From: JAGLHV01 sp023132075 [NCBI: bacterium] | Lineage (GTDB): Bacteria > CBDUZB01 > JAGLHV01 | Direction: 5' to 3' | Assembly (NCBI GenBank): GCA_023132075.1 | Contig: JAGLYT010000063.1 | Location: forward strand, 1 to 8,207 | Length of the DNA stretch: 8,207 bases | Shown here: piece after piece, positions 1 to 7,539 of the stretch | Numbering within the stretch: position 1 is the stretch's first letter | Layout: every line of letters begins with the position of its first letter | Notes under the pieces: model-generated | Seen by the model: only the letters and a program-made list of their open reading frames with translations | Databases searched by the model: none | What the model was told of the DNA's origin: nothing | Program-made: the position numbers and the translations under genes

Positions 1-1479
1 AATATTACCGGGATTAATCTCATATTTTAGGGCACAACGGGGATTAATCGATGTTTCATCATATTCCACCTTCACATTTTCTAAACCCACCTTTGCACTT
101 CCGGCAAATGTATCTTCGGAATTATGAGTATCATAGCGGGCACCAAAAACCAATTCCAATTTATCTGTTGCTTTAAATTCATCCTGAATATAAAAACCAA
201 CCTCCGTAGCACTCTTTTCACTTTCTGATTTATAGGAAGTACTGGACTCCAAATTGACATACATCCCTTCTTCTGTCAGATTGTTGTAATTGTACTGGAC
301 ACCGGTAAGAAGTTTGTTTTTTTCTCCCAATGGATGAGCATAACATATATCCATTACATAAAGATTTTCATCAGCCATATAAGGATGCAGTATATTGCTG
401 GGGGGATATTCATCATTATGGGTTGCCAAATAATCACCCACAAAGGTATCATTAGTGGCATTGCGGTTATGCACAGCAAAAGCAAAATTTATTCCCAGAC
501 TATTTCCTGAATCAAAGTCTTTCTGCCAGCCAAGAGTTACTTCCTGCCTTTTGCTCGCTATATGTTCCGAACCCTCTGCAAAGGGATTCTCAAACACACC
601 TTCTCCTTCACCGCCTTTTCTTGACTCGTTTATCGTCCTTCCGGTAAAGGATAATTTATCATTCCCGGTAAGGTCATAAAAGTTTACCCTTGCTCCGATA
701 CTAATATTATCTGTCCTTACTCTATCGGTAAATCTAACGCCCCCATCCATTTGCGCCTTATTTTCATCATCTACAAATATCTCATCTGCAGTACTTTTCT
801 GGGCAGTAAGCATAATATCTTTATTTTCTCCTGCAATCGAAGCATTTAAAGAATAAACATTAGAATTATGCTGTCCCCATTGGGTTTTAAGCGTTAGTTC
901 CGGCTTGGAAGTCGGCTTCTTGGTGATAATGTTTATAACTCCCGAAATTGCTGAACTACCATAAAGCGCAGAACCTGCTCCTTTTACAATTTCTATTCTT
1001 TCGATATTAGACGCAGGAATCTGATCTAAACCATAAACCCCTGCTAATCCCGAAAAAATCGGTTGTCCATCAATTAACACTTGAACATGTCCTGCTTCCA
1101 GTCCCTGCATTCTAACAACGGTAAAACTACAATAAGAGCATTGTTGTTCAACTCTTACACCCGGAACCCCTTCCAAAATTTGATAAAGATTAATTGCCCC
1201 CTTATCTTCAATATCTTGTGATGTTAGGACCTCAGTTCTCACCGGAGTATCTTTTAACTTTCTTTCCGTTTTAGTTCCGGTAACCACTACCTCTTCTAAT
1301 TTTAAAACTTCCTGCTCCGCTTTCTCAACCTGCTTAACTTCTTCATCCTGTTTGATTTCCTGAGCCTGCTCAATTTCCTCAGTCTGTTCAATTTCCTGAG
1401 CCAAACAATAGTAAGCATTTACCCCCAAACAGATAGCTAAAATACTTGCTCCCATAACTAATTTCCATTTACTAAACAT
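1..1479 (-). CDS. TonB-dependent outer-membrane receptor, 3' end outside window
   Basis: The frame is open from an ATG at 1479 to the window edge, giving 493 residues; the C-terminal part of the barrel is missing. The start has a strong SD (AAGGAGG) about 10 bases upstream. Residues 1-27 look like a signal peptide: basic MFSKWK, a hydrophobic core, then CLA before Q28. A charged hexapeptide-repeat linker follows (about 27-56), then a TonB-box-like EEVVVTGTKTER (about 62-74). The plug domain contains DTPVRTEVLT, LEGVPGVRVE, VVRMQGLEAGHVQVLIDGQP and IERIEIVKGAGSALYGSSAISGVINIITKKP. The remainder reads as alternating beta-barrel strands. The plug has a Cys-X2-Cys (C114, C117) just before the VRMQGL motif. 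Such receptors import chelated iron, haem or cobalamin using TonB energy. Its position after feoAB in the same direction suggests iron or another metal chelate, but the ligand is inferred. No tonB or exbBD genes are in view. Confidence 0.93.
   Translation of the reverse strand, partial: MFSKWKLVMGASILAICLGVNAYYCLAQEIEQTEEIEQAQEIKQDEEVKQVEKAEQEVLKLEEVVVTGTKTERKLKDTPVRTEVLTSQDIEDKGAINLYQILEGVPGVRVEQQCSYCSFTVVRMQGLEAGHVQVLIDGQPIFSGLAGVYGLDQIPASNIERIEIVKGAGSALYGSSAISGVINIITKKPTSKPELTLKTQWGQHNSNVYSLNASIAGENKDIMLTAQKSTADEIFVDDENKAQMDGGVRFTDRVRTDNISIGARVNFYDLTGNDKLSFTGRTINESRKGGEGEGVFENPFAEGSEHIASKRQEVTLGWQKDFDSGNSLGINFAFAVHNRNATNDTFVGDYLATHNDEYPPSNILHPYMADENLYVMDICYAHPLGEKNKLLTGVQYNYNNLTEEGMYVNLESSTSYKSESEKSATEVGFYIQDEFKATDKLELVFGARYDTHNSEDTFAGSAKVGLENVKVEYDETSINPRCALKYEINPGNI
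1313..1402 (-). repeat. Five 18-bp tandem units coding a hexapeptide linker
   Basis: Five imperfect 18-bp units lie head to tail. The three nearest the signal peptide are the most alike (for example TGTTCAATTTCCTGAGCC on the plus strand). They encode AQEIEQ, TEEIEQ, AQEIKQ, DEEVKQ and VEKAEQ, about residues 27-56 of the receptor, between the signal peptide and the TonB-box-like segment. The segment is rich in Glu, Gln and Lys and would make a flexible or helical periplasmic spacer. The last units have diverged, so the array is probably old or relaxed at its distal end. Confidence 0.8.
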
Positions 1480-1532
1480 TTTTTTGTTTCCTCCTTTATT
1501 AAAATTTAAATTTTTTTCAGTGCGGATTTTGT

Positions 1533-1561
1533 ATTATAAAAAACAAGAACTGCTAATAAAT
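1533..1561 (-). promoter_or_regulatory. Possible weak promoter for the TonB-dependent receptor
   Basis: On the minus strand a perfect TATAAT (1533-1538) lies 54 bp before the receptor ATG. The hexamer 17 bp upstream is ATTTAT, a poor match to TTGACA, so a promoter here would need an activator or would be weak. The gene may instead be read through from feoB, since no convincing terminator is visible in the 195-bp gap. This call rests only on the -10 match in AT-rich DNA. Confidence 0.3.
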
Positions 1562-1597
1562 TTGTATCCCTCACCTCCTTTTTCACTTTTTCTTATG

Positions 1598-1632
1598 TTT
1601 TAGGTTTTCCTATCATTTTTAGGTTTTCCTAT
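1598..1632. repeat. Tandem 19-bp direct repeat with TTAG-N6-CTAT cores, possible operator
   Basis: The 16-mer TTTTAGGTTTTCCTAT occurs at 1598-1613 and again, identically, at 1617-1632, a period of 19 bp. Each copy contains an inverted TAGG-TTTT-CCTA. The repeat lies between feoB and the receptor gene, about 120-155 bp before the receptor start and upstream of the possible -10 at 1533. DtxR/IdeR-type iron boxes typically carry TTAGG/CCTAA half-sites, and the regulator's own palindrome at 4697-4726 has TTAG-N6-CTAA at its centre. A metal-regulator site is therefore plausible, but this is inference. Confidence 0.5.
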
Positions 1633-1674
1633 ATTTTAATCTAAAAAAAATTCCCCTTTCTTTATTTTATGTCT

Positions 1675-3693
1675 TTAAATAAATAAAATACCTATTTGAT
1701 AAATCAAGACTGCCACTACCCAACCAAGAATTAAACTATACCCCACAGCTAATACTGTCCATTTCCAGTTAGTTTCTTTCTTGATTGTGGCAATTGCAGC
1801 AATACAGGGAACATATATAAGGGACATTGCCATAAAAGCATAGGCGGAAAGAGGAGTAAAATGCTGCATAATTACACTCTTTAATCCAACCTCTTCTACC
1901 CCGTATAAAGTACCCAATGTTCCTACTACAATCTCTTTAGCTACAATTCCAAAAAGCAGAGATACTGCTGCCTGCCAGGTACCAAACCCGGCTAAGGAAA
2001 ATAATGGGGCAAGCAAGGAACCCAATTTACCAATTAAACTTTCTTTGGCTGCATATTCTACTCCCGGGGGAAGAGAAGCCAACAACCAGACAAACATCAC
2101 TCCCACAAAAATAATCGTCCCTGCTTTTTTCAAAAATAAGCTTCCTTTTTCCCACATATGAATCAAAACACTTTTTACTTGTGGCAATCTATAAGGAGGT
2201 AATTCCATGATTAAAGGAGCAACCTCTTTTTTAAAAAAGATACTCTTAAAAATCCTGGCTACAACAATAGCTAAAACTATACCCATAAAATAAAGAGAAA
2301 AAACTACCAGCCCCTGATGCTCGGCAAAAAATGCTCCGGCAAAGAGGGTATAAATAGGCAATCTTGCCGAACACGACATCAAAGGATTAACCAAAATGGT
2401 AAGGATTCTGTCTTTTTCCGATTCAAGGGTTCTTGCCGCCATAATTCCGGGGATATTACAACCAAAGCCCAACATCATCGGAATAAAAGATTTGCCATGT
2501 AATCCCATCGCATGCATCACCCTATCCATAATAAATGCTGCCCGTGCCATATATCCGGAACCTTCTAAAATAGAAATCATTAAAAATAAAAGCAAAATAT
2601 TGGGCAAAAAAATCAATACCGAACCCACTCCCCCAATAATACCATCTACTAATAGAGAAGAAATCCAGGCAGGAGCCGCCAGAACATTCATTCCCAAAGA
2701 AACTATTCCTCCCAACCATCCGAAAAAACTATCGATTAGGTCTGCTAATGGAGCCCCAAAAGTAAACACCAACTGAAAAGTAAACCACATTAATCCCAAA
2801 AAAATGGGTATCCCTAAAAATTTATTGGTTACTATTTGATCAATTCTATCGGTAATTTCTTCCCTTTCCCTTATTCCCATTATTTTGTGACAACATTCTT
2901 TTACCAACCCTCTTAAAAAAGCGTACCTTCTTTCTACAATCGCTGTTTCGACATCATAGCCAAAATGTTTTTCCAGTTTAGCTATTGATTCAAAAACCTT
3001 TTCTTCTACTTCCTTTTCCTCCGGTAACCCCTTAATTTTCGCCAGGATATTTTCATCCTGCTCCAGGAGTTTTAATACCAGCCAGCGTAGAGAGTACCGG
3101 GACAATATTTTTTTCTCTCCTAAAAACCGCGATAAATTTCTTATTTCGTTTTCTAAGTCATTACCGTAATCTATTTCAAACGTATTTTTTTCTTCCCGAA
3201 CAGAAATATCTTTAACCGCTGATTTTAAATTATCTATCCCTTTTCCTTTATTGGCTGCCGTTTTAATCACGGGAACATCCATTACCCGGGAAAGTTCTTC
3301 TATATCAATTCTCATTCCTTTATTTTCTATTATATCAATCATATTTAAATCCAAAACCAAATTTACCCCTAATTCAAGCAGTTGAACTGCTAAATAAAGA
3401 TTCCTTTCCAGATTGGAAGAGTCAATAATTGCTACTACTACATCCGGCTTTTCTTCCAGTAAAAAATCCCGTGCAATTTTTTCATCCAGGGAATGGGAAG
3501 CCAAACTATATATCCCCGGCAAATCAACTACTTTTATGTTCAGTCCTTCGTAAGCAAACGTTCCCTCTTTTTTTTCTACCGTTACTCCCGGCCAGTTGCC
3601 TACATGTTGACGGGAACCGGTTAAATTATTAAAAATTGTTGTTTTCCCGGAATTAGGATTTCCGGCTAAAGCAACTTTAATTTTTTTCTTCAT
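1675..3693 (-). CDS. feoB: FeoB ferrous iron transporter, GTPase plus membrane domain
   Basis: This 672-residue protein moves Fe(II) across the cytoplasmic membrane. The N-terminal G domain has G1 GNPNSGKT (about 11-18), the switch-I stretch HVGNWPGVTVEKK with the G2 Thr near 38, G3 DLPG (57-60), G4 NMID (117-120) and a G5-like TAANKGKG (145-152). A helical spacer reaches about residue 285. The polytopic region follows, with the Gate signatures GCNIPGIMAARTLES (from about 411) and NPLMSCSARLPIY (from about 436), then VAKEIVVGTLGTLYG and YVPCIAAIATIKKE near the end. The family's usual GCN(V/I)PAI reads GCNIPGI here. I chose the ATG at 3693 over an in-frame TTG one codon upstream because the ATG is better spaced (7 nt) from its AGGAG. 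It follows feoA by 31 bp, is full length, and has no C-terminal FeoC fusion. Confidence 0.97.
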   Translation of the reverse strand: MKKKIKVALAGNPNSGKTTIFNNLTGSRQHVGNWPGVTVEKKEGTFAYEGLNIKVVDLPGIYSLASHSLDEKIARDFLLEEKPDVVVAIIDSSNLERNLYLAVQLLELGVNLVLDLNMIDIIENKGMRIDIEELSRVMDVPVIKTAANKGKGIDNLKSAVKDISVREEKNTFEIDYGNDLENEIRNLSRFLGEKKILSRYSLRWLVLKLLEQDENILAKIKGLPEEKEVEEKVFESIAKLEKHFGYDVETAIVERRYAFLRGLVKECCHKIMGIREREEITDRIDQIVTNKFLGIPIFLGLMWFTFQLVFTFGAPLADLIDSFFGWLGGIVSLGMNVLAAPAWISSLLVDGIIGGVGSVLIFLPNILLLFLMISILEGSGYMARAAFIMDRVMHAMGLHGKSFIPMMLGFGCNIPGIMAARTLESEKDRILTILVNPLMSCSARLPIYTLFAGAFFAEHQGLVVFSLYFMGIVLAIVVARIFKSIFFKKEVAPLIMELPPYRLPQVKSVLIHMWEKGSLFLKKAGTIIFVGVMFVWLLASLPPGVEYAAKESLIGKLGSLLAPLFSLAGFGTWQAAVSLLFGIVAKEIVVGTLGTLYGVEEVGLKSVIMQHFTPLSAYAFMAMSLIYVPCIAAIATIKKETNWKWTVLAVGYSLILGWVVAVLIYQIGILFI

Positions 3694-3724
3694 CAATTTT
3701 CTCCTGCTAATTTTATTTATTTTT

Positions 3725-3943
3725 TCACTTTACAAAAATTTTTTGCGCCATACCAAAACCCAAACCAAGACGCATTCCGTCTTTGGCAATAATGAGAGGA
3801 CCATAGCCGCAATTGGAAATAACTTCTACTATTACTCCCGGATAAAAACCCATATTGAGTAATTTGGTAACTAATCCTCTTCCTCCCCTTATTTCTACAA
3901 TTTCAACCTTTTCCCCCGTCAAAGTTTTGTTAAGCGCTTTCAT
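3725..3943 (-). CDS. feoA: FeoA, small SH3-like partner of FeoB
   Basis: This 72-residue cytosolic protein of normal FeoA length is a single SH3-like beta-barrel domain. Recognisable pieces are the N-terminal LTGEKVEIVEIRGG, the central LLNMGFYPGVIVEVIS and the C-terminal GMRLGLGFGMAQKIFVK. FeoA is needed for Fe(II) uptake by FeoB and is thought to act on its G domain or assembly. Its ATG lies 2 bp after the stop of the upstream regulator gene, and its SD (GGAGGTG, 3955-3961) is inside the end of that gene, so translation is probably coupled. It is distinct from the FeoA-like tail of the regulator, so the cluster encodes two FeoA-type domains. Confidence 0.95.
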   Translation of the reverse strand: MKALNKTLTGEKVEIVEIRGGRGLVTKLLNMGFYPGVIVEVISNCGYGPLIIAKDGMRLGLGFGMAQKIFVK

Positions 3944-3945
3944 TA

Positions 3946-4671
3946 TTATTCTAACACCTCCACTTCAATGCCAACAGCTTCTTCTTTTCTTAAAGACAAA
4001 TGATAACCCTTTAATACTATGTCTATTGGATCCCCTAGAGGAGCGACTTTACGAACTGTCACTTCTACCCCCGGTAAAACTCCCATACTCAATAATTGTT
4101 TTTTTATTTTCGATCCGGGATCTATTTTAATAATTTTGGCTTTTTGCCCGATTTTCAAGTTATTCAAAGTTAAAATAGATGACACTTTATTCCTCCCATC
4201 TTTATTATTTTGTGTATTTTTTTTCTTTAAAGCGGATTCTCTAATAAAATTACCGAAATCAGAAAGCCATAAATCTTTTTTCTTATCCGAAAGTGTTTCA
4301 ATATATTCTACTAATTCAGTAATTTTTTTTGTTGTTTCTTCACTAATATAATGTTCTATCTGACAGGCATCCTTCATCGCTGTTTGAATATTAACCCCTA
4401 ACACCTTATGAAAAAGTTTGAATAATATCTGATGCTTTTCATAAATTTTTTTTGCTGCTCTTTCTCCTTTAGAGGTAAGTTCAATATATCCGTATTTTTC
4501 GTGATTAACCAGTCTTTTTTCACTTAAAATTTTTATTGCTCCGATTACCGATGCCGCCTTAACATTTAACAATTTGACAACATCTTTAACCCGAACAACT
4601 TTTTCTTGTAACGAAATCATCAGAATTGTCTCTAAATAATCTTCTAAACTTGGAGTTAAAGAATTCACCAT
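3946..4671 (-). CDS. DtxR/MntR-family metal-dependent repressor with C-terminal FeoA domain
   Basis: This 241-residue protein has three parts: a winged helix-turn-helix (about 1-66), an all-helical dimerisation and metal-binding domain (about 67-148), and, after a Lys/Asn-rich linker (149-165), a FeoA/SH3-like domain (about 167-241, with GQKAKIIKID and LLSMGVLPGVEVTV). The start SLEDYLETI matches the family, with D11 and E14 at the positions of B. subtilis MntR D8 and E11. H80 (YEKHQ) matches MntR H77. In DACQIEH, E106 and H107 match MntR E102 and H103, while C103 sits at the MntR E99 / DtxR C102 position. The site is therefore part Mn-type, part Fe-type, and the cognate metal is uncertain; fusion to FeoA and the feoAB neighbours favour iron. 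The SD is a short AGGA 4 nt from the ATG. It is probably autoregulated through the palindrome at 4697-4726. Confidence 0.92.
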   Translation of the reverse strand: MVNSLTPSLEDYLETILMISLQEKVVRVKDVVKLLNVKAASVIGAIKILSEKRLVNHEKYGYIELTSKGERAAKKIYEKHQILFKLFHKVLGVNIQTAMKDACQIEHYISEETTKKITELVEYIETLSDKKKDLWLSDFGNFIRESALKKKNTQNNKDGRNKVSSILTLNNLKIGQKAKIIKIDPGSKIKKQLLSMGVLPGVEVTVRKVAPLGDPIDIVLKGYHLSLRKEEAVGIEVEVLE

Positions 4672-4696
4672 TTTTTCCTATTAACTATTGTGTTTT

Positions 4697-4726
4697 TACA
4701 ATTGTTAGTCTACCCTAACAATTGTA
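4697..4726. promoter_or_regulatory. Perfect 12-bp inverted repeat, likely operator of the DtxR-family regulator
   Basis: TACAATTGTTAG (4697-4708) and CTAACAATTGTA (4715-4726) are exact reverse complements separated by 6 bp (TCTACC). The repeat begins 26 bp before the regulator ATG, overlaps the -10 hexamer (4721-4726) and covers the predicted transcription start. That is the classic position for repression. The centre TTAG-N6-CTAA resembles the half-sites of DtxR/IdeR boxes. Binding by the adjacent regulator is inferred from position and symmetry. Confidence 0.8.
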
Positions 4727-4749
4727 GCAAAGCTTGCCTGTTCTGTCAA
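4721..4749 (-). promoter_or_regulatory. Sigma-70 type promoter of the regulator-feoAB cluster
   Basis: On the minus strand TTGACA (4744-4749, perfect -35) is followed by an ideal 17-bp spacer and TACAAT (4721-4726, -10, five of six). A TG one base before the -10 makes it an extended -10. Upstream (about 4750-4775) is an A/T-tract stretch that could act as an UP element. This is the strongest promoter seen in the window, and its -10 is buried in the inverted repeat, which fits tight metal-dependent repression of the whole uptake cluster. Confidence 0.85.
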
Positions 4750-4806
4750 GATAAATTTTATTTTTATTTTCCGATAAAAAATCAGCCTTAGCCCGTCAGC
4801 AACTTA

Positions 4807-5016
4807 TTACCACTTTTTTTTATTTTGATAAATTTCAATAAATTTCTCAATTGAGCGGTCATAGGTTCTTTCTACCTCAGAAGGGAAAAAACAAGCAGGA
4901 AATTCATCAAGTCTTAAATGGTATTGCAAGCATTCACAACAGATACCTTTCCTGGCACAAGGTTCATAGGTACAATTACAATTTTTTTTGTTTTTCTCGA
5001 CTTTACATTCGCTCAT
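4807..5016 (-). CDS. Small cysteine-rich protein, DUF6485-like
   Basis: This 69-residue protein has eight cysteines (4, 13, 15, 20, 26, 27, 29, 42) in the pattern CNCTYEPCARKGICCECLQYH...LPACFFP-like, followed by ERTYDRSIEKFIEIY. It resembles the uncharacterised DUF6485 family common in anaerobes, from memory of the family pattern. The clustered cysteines suggest zinc or iron-sulfur binding, which is unproven. There is no signal peptide, so it is probably cytosolic. I chose the ATG at 5016 because it follows AGGAGGG by 8 nt and lies just downstream of a TATAAT. A longer reading from TTG at 5070 would begin inside the -35 and is rejected. It lies 135 bp before the iron regulator in the same direction, but that gene has its own promoter, so a shared function is only suggested. 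Confidence 0.85.
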   Translation of the reverse strand: MSECKVEKNKKNCNCTYEPCARKGICCECLQYHLRLDEFPACFFPSEVERTYDRSIEKFIEIYQNKKKW

Positions 5017-5040
5017 TATTAATTCCCTCCTAATTTTTTT

Positions 5041-5070
5041 ATTATATCCGTTTCCTTTATTAAAAGTCAA
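5041..5070 (-). promoter_or_regulatory. Promoter of the cysteine-rich gene
   Basis: On the minus strand TTGACT (5065-5070) is followed by an 18-bp spacer and a perfect TATAAT (5041-5046). The predicted start near 5034 gives a leader of about 18 nt that contains the SD AGGAGGG (5025-5031) of the gene starting at 5016. The -35 lies in the left arm of the inverted repeat at 5056-5096. Confidence 0.75.
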
Positions 5071-5096
5071 TTGAAATTTAATTGACTTTTAATAAA
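5056..5096. promoter_or_regulatory. Perfect 17-bp inverted repeat between divergent promoters
   Basis: The arms 5056-5072 and 5080-5096 are exact reverse complements (core AAAAGTCAATT / AATTGACTTTT) around a 7-bp centre, GAAATTT. Each arm carries a TTGACT that serves as the -35 of an outward-facing promoter. A dimeric or tetrameric regulator bound here would cover both -35 elements at once. It is unlikely to be a terminator because it lies upstream of both genes. No regulator candidate for it is in the window apart from the DtxR-family protein, whose own palindrome is different. Confidence 0.75.
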
Positions 5097-5110
5097 AAGT
5101 TTTGTATTCT
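5082..5110 (+). promoter_or_regulatory. Promoter of the GH65-GT4 operon
   Basis: TTGACT (5082-5087), a 17-bp spacer and TATTCT (5105-5110, four of six) form a plausible sigma-70 promoter. The predicted start is near 5117, giving an 88-90 nt leader before the ATG at 5206. The -35 lies in the right arm of the inverted repeat at 5056-5096. Confidence 0.6.
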
Positions 5111-5117
5111 TGAAATG

Positions 5118-5205
5118 CTTTACTTGTAATAATACTAAAGAAGAATTAGTTAAAAATGTTTGTTTAATTATAATTCAAACAAATTCCCCTTTATTAAAGG
5201 AAACA
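5118..5205 (+). other. 5' leader of the GH65 gene with two small inverted repeats
   Basis: The predicted leader contains TTTGTTT (5159-5165) and AAACAAA (5177-5183) flanking AATTATAATTC, and then CCTTTA-T-TAAAGG (5188-5200), whose right arm includes the SD AAAGGA (5196-5201) of the ATG at 5206. The second repeat could weakly hide the SD in the mRNA, but its stem is only 6 bp. The first could equally be an operator. I recognise no riboswitch class here. Confidence 0.35.
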
Positions 5206-7539
5206 ATGGCTAATTATTTTACCCAATATTTATCTCCTCCTTCCTGGTTAATCATCTCAGAAGGCTGGGACCCCAAACAACAAAACGTAATTGAAACGCA
5301 ATTGACCCTTGGTAATGGGAACATAGGCAGTAGAGGAATTTTAGAAGAAATTCCCCGTAATTGTTTTCCCGGTACTTTCTTCAGCAATATTTATGATAAA
5401 GCAGGTGCACAAGTAACTGAAATAGTCAATGCCCCCAATCCCATAGATTTCAGGGTAATCAGCGAAGGCGAAAAACTCGATGTCACGGCAATGGATGTAC
5501 ATAAGCATAAACGGATTATGGATATGCAAAAGGGTTTTTTAATTAGAAAAACAATTTATCAAAACAGTAAGAAAAAGAAATTTAATTACCAGTCAATGCG
5601 GTTTTTTAGTATGCACGATCCACATATTGCCGTAATGAAAGTTTATATTACTCCCTTAGATGATTCAGCTCATATTACTGTCGAAAGTGCAGTAAATTCT
5701 TCTATCACCAATAAAGGAGTAGTCACCGAAGGGAATAAAAAACATGTTGATATTATAGAATTTGTTAAACACGATAATGTTAACTATTTATGTTTTAAAA
5801 CATTAGACCGGAATATTTTGCTCGCTTATGGAACTCAATTAAAAATAGAACAAAACAAAAAAATTTCCGTTGTTTCTACCCGCTCGTTTGATTTAAAACT
5901 AAAAAAAAATGAAACAGTAATTATTACCAAGTTCTTTACTTTTTATACTTCACTGGAGATTCCAGCTAACCGAATCAAAACCAAAACGATAAAAACTATC
6001 CAAAAAATTACTAAAAAAGGGTTCAATCAACTCTTTAATGACCATTGCAAAGTCTGGCGGAAAAAATGGAAAAAAGCCAATATAGAAATAGAGGGAGATT
6101 CTAAAACGGAAAAGGCATTAAGATTTAATATTTATCATTTGCTTATTTCTGCCGGCACGCAAGATATTGACACCAGCATCAAAGCAAAAGCACTTAGCGG
6201 AGAAGGTTATCGTGGGCACATTTTCTGGGATACGGAAATATTCATCCTCCCTTTTTTTATTTATACGCACCCCATTATTGCCAAGAATTTATTGCTCTAC
6301 CGTTACCGCAGATTAAACGAGGCTCGAAAAAACGCCCAACAAAAAGGTTTCAAAGGAGCTATGTTTCCATGGGAATCAGCTGATACCGGAAAAGATGTCA
6401 CCCCTCAGTGGTATAAAAATGTGGAAGGTAAAATTGAAAAAGTAGATACAATGAAATATGAGCATCATATAACCGCTGACGTTGCCTATGGAATTTTTCA
6501 TTATTTTACCGCCACCAACGATGTTTCTTTTATGTTAAAATACGGATTGGAAATTATTTTAGAGACAGCCAGATTCTGGGCAAGCAGAGTAGAACAGAAT
6601 AAACGGACTAAAAAATACGAAATAAAACATGTTATCGGTCCGGACGAATTTCACGTAGAGGTCAACAACAATGCGTTTACTAATTTAATGGCGAAATGGA
6701 ATTTAGAGATTGCTCGAAAAATATATTTAACCCTAAAAAAAGAATCCCCCGGCCCGGTAAAAACAATTACTAAACAAATCGAATTAAAAATAAAAGAGCT
6801 GGAAGAATGGGAAAATATAGCCCGGAATATGTTTGTTCCTTTTTCCGAGAAAACCGGAATTATTGAAGAATTTGAAAATTATTTTAAACTAAAAAAACTT
6901 CCTCTACCTGAATTGGATAACCACTTTTTGCCTCTTCTACCCAAAAAGATTCATACTATAAATAAAACCCAATTCGTTAAACAAGCCGATGTTGTTATGT
7001 TGTTATACTTATTATCCTCTGCCTTTGATGCTAATTTGAAGAAAAAAAATTATCTCTTTTACGAAAAAAGAACCCTCCATCAATCATCTCTTAGTGTTTC
7101 TATGCATTCTTTAATGGGTGTAGAGGTAGGCGAAAAAATTAAAGCATATCGTTATTTTCTTAATTCGGTGTATGCCGACCTTAATAATATTTACGGTAAC
7201 ACTGTTGATGGAATCCATGCCGCATCGTTAGGAGGAACATGGCAGGCGGTAATCAACGGTTTTGCGGGGGTAAAAGTTGAAAAAGGAATTCTTTCTTTTC
7301 AACCAAAACTCCCCTCCCGGTGGGAAAAAATTAAATTTTTGCTACAATGGAAAGGACATGAAATATCCATAACCATAAACAAAGAAAAAATTAGTCTTAA
7401 CTTTTTTTCTAAAAACAAAAAAGATACTCTGCCGATAAAAGTGTACGGGGTCGTCCAAAAACTACCGGCAAATAAAAGAACCGTTTTTCTTAGAGAAATG
7501 AAGCAAAAAGTACCATTAGATACCAAAGGATTTTATTAA
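5206..7539 (+). CDS. GH65 family alpha-glucoside phosphorylase
   Basis: This 777-residue protein has the normal length of GH65 phosphorylases, which cleave alpha-glucosides with phosphate, inverting to beta-glucose 1-phosphate. The N-terminal beta-sandwich (about 10-250) includes LGNGNIGSRG. The (alpha/alpha)6 barrel follows (about 285-660), with HIFWDTEIFILPF (from 338), GAMFPWESADTG and GPDEFHVEVNNNAFTN (from 478), whose E481 is the predicted general acid. KQADVV (592-597) and the phosphate-loop motif RTLHQSSLS (622-630) come next, then DGIHAASLGGTWQAV and a short beta C-terminal domain. There is no signal peptide, so it is cytosolic. The ATG at 5206 has an SD; an upstream TTG frame at 5110 begins in the -10 hexamer, and its 32 extra residues are not family-like. 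Kojibiose, trehalose, maltose, nigerose and glucosylglycerol are all possible substrates, and I cannot choose among them. No beta-phosphoglucomutase gene is in view. GT4 follows by 16 bp. Confidence 0.92.
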   Translation: MANYFTQYLSPPSWLIISEGWDPKQQNVIETQLTLGNGNIGSRGILEEIPRNCFPGTFFSNIYDKAGAQVTEIVNAPNPIDFRVISEGEKLDVTAMDVHKHKRIMDMQKGFLIRKTIYQNSKKKKFNYQSMRFFSMHDPHIAVMKVYITPLDDSAHITVESAVNSSITNKGVVTEGNKKHVDIIEFVKHDNVNYLCFKTLDRNILLAYGTQLKIEQNKKISVVSTRSFDLKLKKNETVIITKFFTFYTSLEIPANRIKTKTIKTIQKITKKGFNQLFNDHCKVWRKKWKKANIEIEGDSKTEKALRFNIYHLLISAGTQDIDTSIKAKALSGEGYRGHIFWDTEIFILPFFIYTHPIIAKNLLLYRYRRLNEARKNAQQKGFKGAMFPWESADTGKDVTPQWYKNVEGKIEKVDTMKYEHHITADVAYGIFHYFTATNDVSFMLKYGLEIILETARFWASRVEQNKRTKKYEIKHVIGPDEFHVEVNNNAFTNLMAKWNLEIARKIYLTLKKESPGPVKTITKQIELKIKELEEWENIARNMFVPFSEKTGIIEEFENYFKLKKLPLPELDNHFLPLLPKKIHTINKTQFVKQADVVMLLYLLSSAFDANLKKKNYLFYEKRTLHQSSLSVSMHSLMGVEVGEKIKAYRYFLNSVYADLNNIYGNTVDGIHAASLGGTWQAVINGFAGVKVEKGILSFQPKLPSRWEKIKFLLQWKGHEISITINKEKISLNFFSKNKKDTLPIKVYGVVQKLPANKRTVFLREMKQKVPLDTKGFY

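What the first reader, a model, noticed from the sequence alone, without database searches (positions are those of the whole stretch)
4697..4749. Perfect 30-bp palindrome buried in the promoter of a DtxR-FeoA regulator
A near-ideal promoter (TTGACA-17-TACAAT with extended -10) has its -10 inside an exact 12+6+12 inverted repeat just before the regulator gene. The centre TTAG-N6-CTAA recalls DtxR boxes, but the outer CAATTG arms do not match the DtxR/IdeR or MntR consensus sequences I know. This may be a lineage-specific metal box controlling the whole Feo-receptor cluster.
Basis: partly seen in the sequence, partly recalled or inferred. Interest (0 to 1): 0.6.

Follow-up and report, generated by a model that had tools for sequence, protein, structure and literature searches.

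The report
DtxR-type metal-repressor operator over feo promoter
The palindrome is very probably the docking site of a metal-sensing repressor that shuts off its own iron-uptake operon, and its core is shared by related regulators in many distant bacteria rather than being special to this one.

Summary
An exact 12+6+12 palindrome (4697-4726) contains the -10 of a strong promoter (TTGACA-17-TACAAT) reading into a DtxR-FeoA gene. Such arms arose in 1 of 3000 intergenic shuffles.

The palindrome is conserved upstream of the orthologue in both other held genomes of the genus, but only its core, GTTAG-N6-CTAAC. The outer CAATTG/TAC arms change, and one of them is simply the -10.

The core is not lineage-specific. 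TTAG-N6-CTAA lies upstream of 40 of 108 DtxR-like genes (29 family codes); no other spacing from 0 to 16 exceeds 4 of 108. It is commoner beside feoB and also precedes feoB operons away from the regulator (6 cases).

Its geometry equals what one dimer contacts in the published DtxR/IdeR box, so it does match a known DtxR-type pattern: the single-dimer half.

Best explanation: the metal-loaded DtxR-FeoA dimer binds it, blocks RNA polymerase, and represses its own feoA-feoB (probably also TonB-receptor) operon. Fe(II) is the likelier signal; Mn(II) is not excluded. No binding was measured, and 68 of 108 homologues lack the exact box.

The parts
4697..4726 (.). 30-bp palindrome TACAATTGTTAG-TCTACC-CTAACAATTGTA (12+6+12)
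4704..4719 (.). conserved operator core GTTAG-N6-CTAAC, predicted site of one DtxR-FeoA dimer
   Evidence: exact match, only one in the genome as held; conserved in G001 and G002 and, as TTAG-N6-CTAA, in 40 of 108 homologue upstreams
4721..4726 (-). -10 TACAAT with TG extension; also the outer end of one arm
   Evidence: -10 kept in G002 but separated from the core by 8 extra bp, TATATT in G001
4744..4749 (-). -35 TTGACA, 17-nt spacer
   Evidence: TTGACA-17 kept in G001 and G002
3946..4671 (-). DtxR-family regulator with one C-terminal FeoA domain (241 aa); predicted metal ligands D11, E14, H80, C103, E106, H107
   Evidence: Pfam; alignment to B. subtilis MntR; conserved columns
3725..3943 (-). 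stand-alone FeoA (72 aa)
   Evidence: present in G001 and G002
1675..3696 (-). FeoB ferrous-iron permease, the only FeoB found in the genome as held
1..1479 (-). TonB-dependent receptor (runs off the contig); 195-nt gap after feoB, so co-transcription is inferred only
   Evidence: its orthologue follows feoB in G001 (79% over 155 aa) and G002 (91%)

Best explanation
The palindrome is the operator of the DtxR-FeoA regulator encoded directly downstream of it. One metal-loaded homodimer is predicted to sit on GTTAG-N6-CTAAC, one winged helix per half-site, on top of the -10 and start point. It excludes RNA polymerase and represses dtxR-feoA, feoA, feoB and probably the TonB receptor. When cytosolic metal (most likely Fe(II), possibly Mn(II)) falls, the dimer lets go and the uptake operon is expressed: a negative autoregulatory loop. 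Shown here: exact sequence, overlap with a consensus promoter, conservation of the core and its spacing, linkage to DtxR-like genes and feoB. Inferred: which protein binds, the one-dimer stoichiometry, the metal, the direction of control.
For: The core is conserved in 3 of 3 held genomes of the genus while flanks and even the distance to the -10 changed (+8 bp in G002). TTAG-N6-CTAA lies upstream of 34 of 102 homologues (50 shuffle runs: mean 0.6, max 3). In a second sample (26 loci shared with the first) it lies upstream of 40 of 108, against at most 4 for any other spacing 0-16 and 0 in an in-gene control. The best promoter's -10 sits in fixed phase with the site (-8 to -13, or -3) in 24 of 51 sites, against a mean of 5.5 and a maximum of 13 in 2000 reassignments of site positions (bins chosen after seeing the data). 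Box and feoB on the same fetched stretch: 30 of 56 with feoB against 8 of 50 without, Fisher p 9e-5. In trans: 11 of 30 feoB loci of genomes picked as DtxR-bearing have it within 1.2 kb (other spacings 0-15 at most 2), 6 of them away from the regulator, against 1 of 16 in genomes with no DtxR-domain match. The box label is clustered on the protein tree (22 changes against 36 when shuffled, 0 of 500 as low). One dimer of IdeR contacts repeats 1+3 of TTAGGTTAGSCTAACCTAA, which is TTAG-N6-CTAA, and an engineered half-site binds with KD 78 nM (PMC8464063, passages).
Against: 68 of 108 homologue upstreams have no exact TTAG-N6-CTAA, and recognition-helix residues do not differ visibly between box+ and box-, so the protein-box link is statistical. 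Mere nearness of promoter and site is not informative: -10 within -30..+25 of the site centre in 34 of 51 against 28 (max 36) when site positions are reassigned; and part of the phase signal is built in, because at -3 the site's own TTAG supplies -10 letters. The feoB link is not significant when only phylogenetically independent pairs are counted (8 pairs, median p 0.5). A Fur-family protein exists in each genus genome and could also act here. No binding or expression data.
Confidence: 0.86

Rival explanations
1. Same operator and protein, but the co-repressor is Mn(II) and the FeoB is a manganese importer, with Fe(II) neutral or even de-repressing.
For: Best NCBIfam and PDB sequence matches of the N-terminal part are MntR, and D11/E14/H80/E106/H107 align with MntR ligands. 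P. gingivalis PgMntR, also DtxR plus FeoA domains with an Asp/Cys hybrid site and in a feoB2 operon, binds DNA better with Mn(II) and is destabilised by Fe(II) (PMC4805248, passages).
Against: C103 sits where MntR has Glu and DtxR/IdeR has Cys (PMC10317159 passages, say sulfur ligands increase Fe(II) selectivity). The operon carries a TonB-dependent receptor and the only FeoB found in each of the three genomes. NCBIfam MntR cut-off is not reached (87.5 < 138 bits).
Confidence: 0.3
2. The symmetry acts in RNA, as a hairpin in the leader (attenuator, riboswitch or translation control).
For: Perfect arms of 12 nt; in G002 the -10 lies upstream of the core, so there the whole core could be transcribed; in G023 (L015) the 16+6+16 palindrome covers the ribosome-binding site of the regulator gene.
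Against: With the -10 inside one arm, the predicted start point falls within the palindrome, so the transcript would carry only the second arm, here and in G001. No Rfam match reaches its gathering score in 4600-5210 (3 matches up to E 1, best E 0.09, all outside the palindrome). The spacing-specific core, not arm length, is what is conserved.
Confidence: 0.06
3. Another regulator (for example the Fur-family protein) uses this palindrome and the DtxR-FeoA linkage is incidental.
For: Each genus genome has 1-2 Fur-family proteins.
Against: The core resembles the DtxR half-box and not the E. coli Fur consensus GATAATGATNATCATTATC (quoted in PMC545781). It is found upstream of DtxR homologues in distant families, and 15 of 16 feoB loci in genomes with no DtxR-domain match lack it.
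Confidence: 0.06
4. The long perfect arms are partly accidental: a selected 16-bp core next to a -10 that happens to mirror the downstream flank.
For: Outer arms differ in G001 (6-nt arms) and G002 (9-nt arms).
Against: Extra arms of >=7 nt beyond TTAG occur in 5 of 69 sites (window included) against about 0.2 expected from shuffled partners, so long arms are not always accidental, though one of the five (L173) is an A/T run.
Confidence: 0.5

Closest known systems
DtxR/IdeR 19-bp box TTAGGTTAGSCTAACCTAA (C. diphtheriae DtxR, SeIdeR; PMC8464063, passages seen)
   Same: Half-site spacing TTAG-N6-CTAA is exactly that contacted by one dimer; the consensus spacer found here (RYTARY) also fits GTTAGS.
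   Different: Only one dimer register is present: 13 of the first 15 positions match and none of the last four (compared by eye). Symmetry extends outward instead, and the outer base is C (CTAAC).
SeIdeR single-dimer half-site TTAGGNNNNCCTAA (PMC8464063, passages seen)
   Same: 14-bp two-half-site unit with the same centre-to-centre distance.
   Different: Inner C/G of CCTAA is not strictly kept (window: TTAGG...ACTAA); here the outer G/C is commoner. There it is described as the first reported one-dimer complex; here it seems common.
PgMntR of Porphyromonas gingivalis (PMC4805248, passages seen)
   Same: DtxR-type regulator with C-terminal FeoA, Asp/Cys hybrid ligands, in an operon with feoB.
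   Different: Twin FeoA domains fused; DNA binding shown on a 385-bp fragment, no operator sequence in the passages seen; Mn(II) enhances and Fe(II) destabilises DNA binding.
B. subtilis MntR (PDB 1on1) and its NCBIfam equivalog
   Same: Best PDB sequence match, covering residues 6-134.
   Different: No FeoA domain; Glu99 where this protein has Cys103; equivalog cut-off not met.
Archaeal DtxR regulons (Leyn and Rodionov 2015; not held; content recalled)
   Same: As recalled, palindromic DtxR-family motifs upstream of feoAB.
   Different: Archaea; could not be compared directly.
Treponema TroR operator (PMC2628430, passages seen)
   Same: DtxR-like regulator; 18-bp dyad near a sigma70-like promoter; Mn- and Fe-dependent.
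   Different: Controls an ABC transporter operon; operator letters were not in the passages seen, so the core could not be compared.

Membership tests
DtxR family (protein) | N-terminal wHTH plus metal-binding/dimerisation domain | tested here: met
   PF01325 44.3 bits, PF02742 60.7 bits, both over cut-off
DtxR family (protein) | SH3-like third domain (not present in all members) | tested here: inconclusive
   FeoA domain PF04023 72.6 bits in the third-domain position; that FeoA is SH3-like is recalled, not tested
Iron-type DtxR/IdeR sensor | sulfur ligands Met and Cys in primary site | tested here: inconclusive
   Cys103 present, Met replaced by Asp11
MntR equivalog (NCBIfam NF003025) | score over curated cut-off | tested here: not met
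   87.5 bits against 138
PgMntR twin-FeoA subfamily | two fused FeoA domains | tested here: not met
   one fused FeoA; the second is a separate gene
Two-dimer DtxR/IdeR box | two overlapping TTAG-N6-CTAA registers offset by 5 bp | tested here: not met
   only one register in the window sequence (compared by eye with the consensus)
Single-dimer DtxR-type operator | TTAG/CTAA half-sites with 6-bp spacing | tested here: met
   exact, and spacing-specific across homologues
Single-dimer DtxR-type operator | metal-dependent binding of one dimer | not testable with these tools
   needs purified protein

The most novel reading that the evidence does not exclude
GTTAG-N6-CTAAC (consensus WWGTTAGRYTARYCTAACWW) is the default, probably ancestral one-dimer operator of a large, hardly studied DtxR subfamily with an Asp/Cys hybrid metal site. 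Across many phyla, probably mostly anaerobes, that subfamily rather than Fur controls ferrous-iron uptake (feoAB), and the classic 19-bp DtxR box would be two such units overlapped by half a turn.
Probability: 0.45. Interest if true: 0.6.

Novelty: new member of a known kind. Interest (0 to 1): 0.4.

Why it matters
It turns an isolated palindrome into a testable cross-family operator for DtxR-type regulators of feoAB. A review seen in passages (PMC10317159) says most Gram-negatives and low-GC Gram-positives use Fur for iron and restrict DtxR proteins to manganese; a DtxR box on feo operons in distant families would qualify that. It would also let uncultured lineages' iron or manganese regulons be read from sequence, and shows the one-dimer site as a common form rather than an exception.

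Tried and rejected
Rejected: genome-wide regulon in the genus. Exact GTTAG-N6-CTAAC occurs once in G000 and once in G002, both at this promoter; G001 has two more, both inside coding frames (a radical-SAM/UPF0004/TRAM protein, and a long open frame not searched). With up to 1 mismatch, hits are fewer than for the reversed control pattern in all three genomes.

Rejected: RNA element (no Rfam match at its gathering score; predicted start point inside the palindrome).

Literature search for the box: nine searches. I saw the listings only, cut at 25 of 33, 20 of 46, 15 of 782 and 12 of 24, and passages of six papers (PMC4805248, PMC8464063, PMC545781, PMC10317159, PMC2628430, PMC3327659). None of what I saw defines GTTAG-N6-CTAAC for feo or DtxR-FeoA in bacteria; the library lacks most subscription papers, so this does not show absence. 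No structure prediction was run.

Rows dropped: the 102 set and 108 set share 26 loci (22 by id, 4 the same DNA under two ids). Of the 80 named loci, L093 (FeoA part only) and L118 (no upstream) were left out. In the PWM L013, L138, L191 and L197 were dropped as near-copies, as were sites with short flanks; L013 and L014 were left out of the Fisher test. The alignment of 189 rows holds those four doubles. Sixty stretches were fetched for matches that had no locus, weaker ones not. 'feoB nearby' depends on fetched stretches of unequal length. One search examined 30 of 36 FeoB matches; its 30 handles, picked by me mainly because the regulator there had no box or no feoB beside it, included one genome with a box (G134) and one (G143) not on the DtxR match list. 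Its seventh 'no local dtxR' case (L215) has dtxR on the same contig just beyond the stretch, so I count 6. The 22 control handles were 15 with no match and 7 with only FeoA-domain matches. The 29 family codes are my hand count and include the window's own.

Full report
What is there. The window holds, on the minus strand, a DtxR-FeoA gene (3946-4671), a stand-alone feoA (3725-3943), feoB (1675-3696) and a TonB-dependent receptor that runs off the contig (1-1479). In front of the first gene lies an exact 12+6+12 palindrome at 4697-4726. Its upstream arm contains the -10 of a promoter with TTGACA, 17 nt, TACAAT and an extended -10. Arms of 12 or more with spacer up to 10 were seen in 0 of 60 dinucleotide shuffles of the window and 1 of 3000 of the intergenic region. 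A longer palindrome exists at 5056-5096 but is a different element.

Conservation in the genus. Two other genomes of the genus are held (G001, 69% identical regulator; G002, 91%). Both keep TTGACA-17-(-10) and GTTAG-N6-CTAAC upstream of the orthologue. In G002 eight extra bases separate the -10 from the core; in G001 the arms shrink to TGTTAG/CTAACA. So the conserved unit is the 16-bp core. The outer CAATTG arms of the window are not conserved; on the upstream side they are the -10 itself. Exact cores elsewhere: none in G000 or G002; two in G001, both inside coding frames. This looks like a single-operon operator in this genus, not a regulon. The order regulator, feoA, feoB, TonB receptor is the same in all three genomes, and each has one FeoB match.

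Beyond the genus. The 40 come from 29 family codes, the window's own included (hand count). The symmetrised consensus from 44 sites is WWGTTAGRYTARYCTAACWW. The nearest rows to the window regulator on the tree (G002, G001, G138 and two Aerophobetes loci) all carry the box; over 117 rows the label needs 22 changes against 36 when shuffled. 68 of 108 have no exact site; one (L029) has a one-letter variant, GTTAG-N6-CGAAC.

Position and targets. The best promoter's -10 lies within -30..+25 of the site centre in 34 of 51 sites, but reassigning site positions among loci gives 28 on average (max 36), so nearness alone says little. The finer phase does: 18 sites at -8 to -13 and 6 at -3, 24 of 51, against 5.5 on average and 13 at most in 2000 reassignments. 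These bins were set after looking, and at -3 the site's own letters form part of the -10. Stretches that hold feoB carry the box in 30 of 56 cases, those without in 8 of 50 (Fisher p 9e-5), but independent pairs on the tree are too few for significance. In 30 genomes picked mainly because the regulator was found without a box or without feoB beside it, 11 of 30 feoB loci have the box within 1.2 kb upstream (other spacings at most 2). Four of these have a dtxR in the locus, one has it just outside, and six have their regulator elsewhere (L210, L214, L226, L230, L231, L235). In genomes without a DtxR-domain match, 1 of 16 feoB loci has it. This is what a trans-acting DtxR-type repressor of feo would leave.

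Mechanism. In the IdeR-DNA structures each 19-bp box TTAGGTTAGSCTAACCTAA takes two dimers, one on repeats 1 and 3, the other on repeats 2 and 4; a DNA with only one dimer's repeats binds with KD 78 nM, and the authors propose TTAGGNNNNCCTAA as the redefined consensus (PMC8464063, passages). Repeats 1 and 3 are TTAG-N6-CTAA, the unit found here. I infer that one metal-loaded dimer of DtxR-FeoA binds the core and blocks RNA polymerase at its own promoter. The start point should fall near 4714, inside the palindrome, so the transcript would carry only one arm; that argues against an RNA hairpin here, though not in G002.

Metal. The predicted ligands are D11, E14, H80, C103, E106 and H107: Asp as in MntR, Cys as in DtxR/IdeR. 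C103 is kept in 179 of 189 aligned rows and D11 in 168 of 189. PgMntR has the same hybrid and responds to Mn(II), with Fe(II) weakening DNA binding and its second FeoA domain essential (PMC4805248, passages). The TonB receptor and the single FeoB make Fe(II) likelier here (about 0.65, my judgement), but this is open. A Fur-family protein is also present in each genus genome.

What is new. DtxR-type operators and one-dimer IdeR sites are known. Nine literature searches, seen as partly cut listings of an open-licence library, showed no paper that defines this box for feo-linked DtxR or DtxR-FeoA regulators in bacteria; the archaeal DtxR regulon paper could not be read. I therefore file the site as a new member of a known kind, with the cross-family box as the more interesting by-product.

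Changed on checking. Promoter nearness was withdrawn as support and replaced by the phase count with its control; confidence in the best explanation went from 0.87 to 0.86 and the RNA and Fur rivals from 0.05 to 0.06.

Noticed in passing
window 5056-5096: A second, longer palindrome (20+1+20 at 95%; 17+7+17 perfect) between the DUF6485 gene and the GH65 gene, containing TTGACT -35-like hexamers facing both ways; largely conserved in G002. Possibly a divergent-promoter operator.
   Followed up: partly
L015 (G023), upstream of its DtxR-FeoA gene: A perfect 16+6+16 palindrome built around the same core that covers an AGGAGG just before the regulator's start, so DNA and RNA control could overlap there.
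   Followed up: no
L196 and L197 (G231, G091), 250 nt upstream of the regulator: Five TTAG-N6-CTAA sites in a row upstream of one regulator gene on a stretch with feoA/feoB.
   Followed up: no
69 sites in homologue upstreams: Perfect symmetry beyond the core is rare but above chance: 5 of 69 sites have >=7 extra pairs against about 0.2 expected; reason unknown.
   Followed up: partly
window 1480-1674: 195-nt gap between feoB and the TonB receptor with A/T-rich inverted repeats (I6, I13, I19); could hold its own control. No terminator-like site was listed there.
   Followed up: no
window 4807-5016: Cys-rich DUF6485 small protein upstream of the regulator, same strand; 91% identical counterpart in G002, none found in the held G001 stretch. 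Function unknown.
   Followed up: partly
G000, G001, G002: In one search, where all 60 genomes are listed, nothing lies between 'same genus' (2) and 'same domain' (57) for this host; the named contig with the G002 sequence is labelled 'Clostridia' (L042) although TonB receptors suggest an outer membrane, so the label may be wrong.
   Followed up: no
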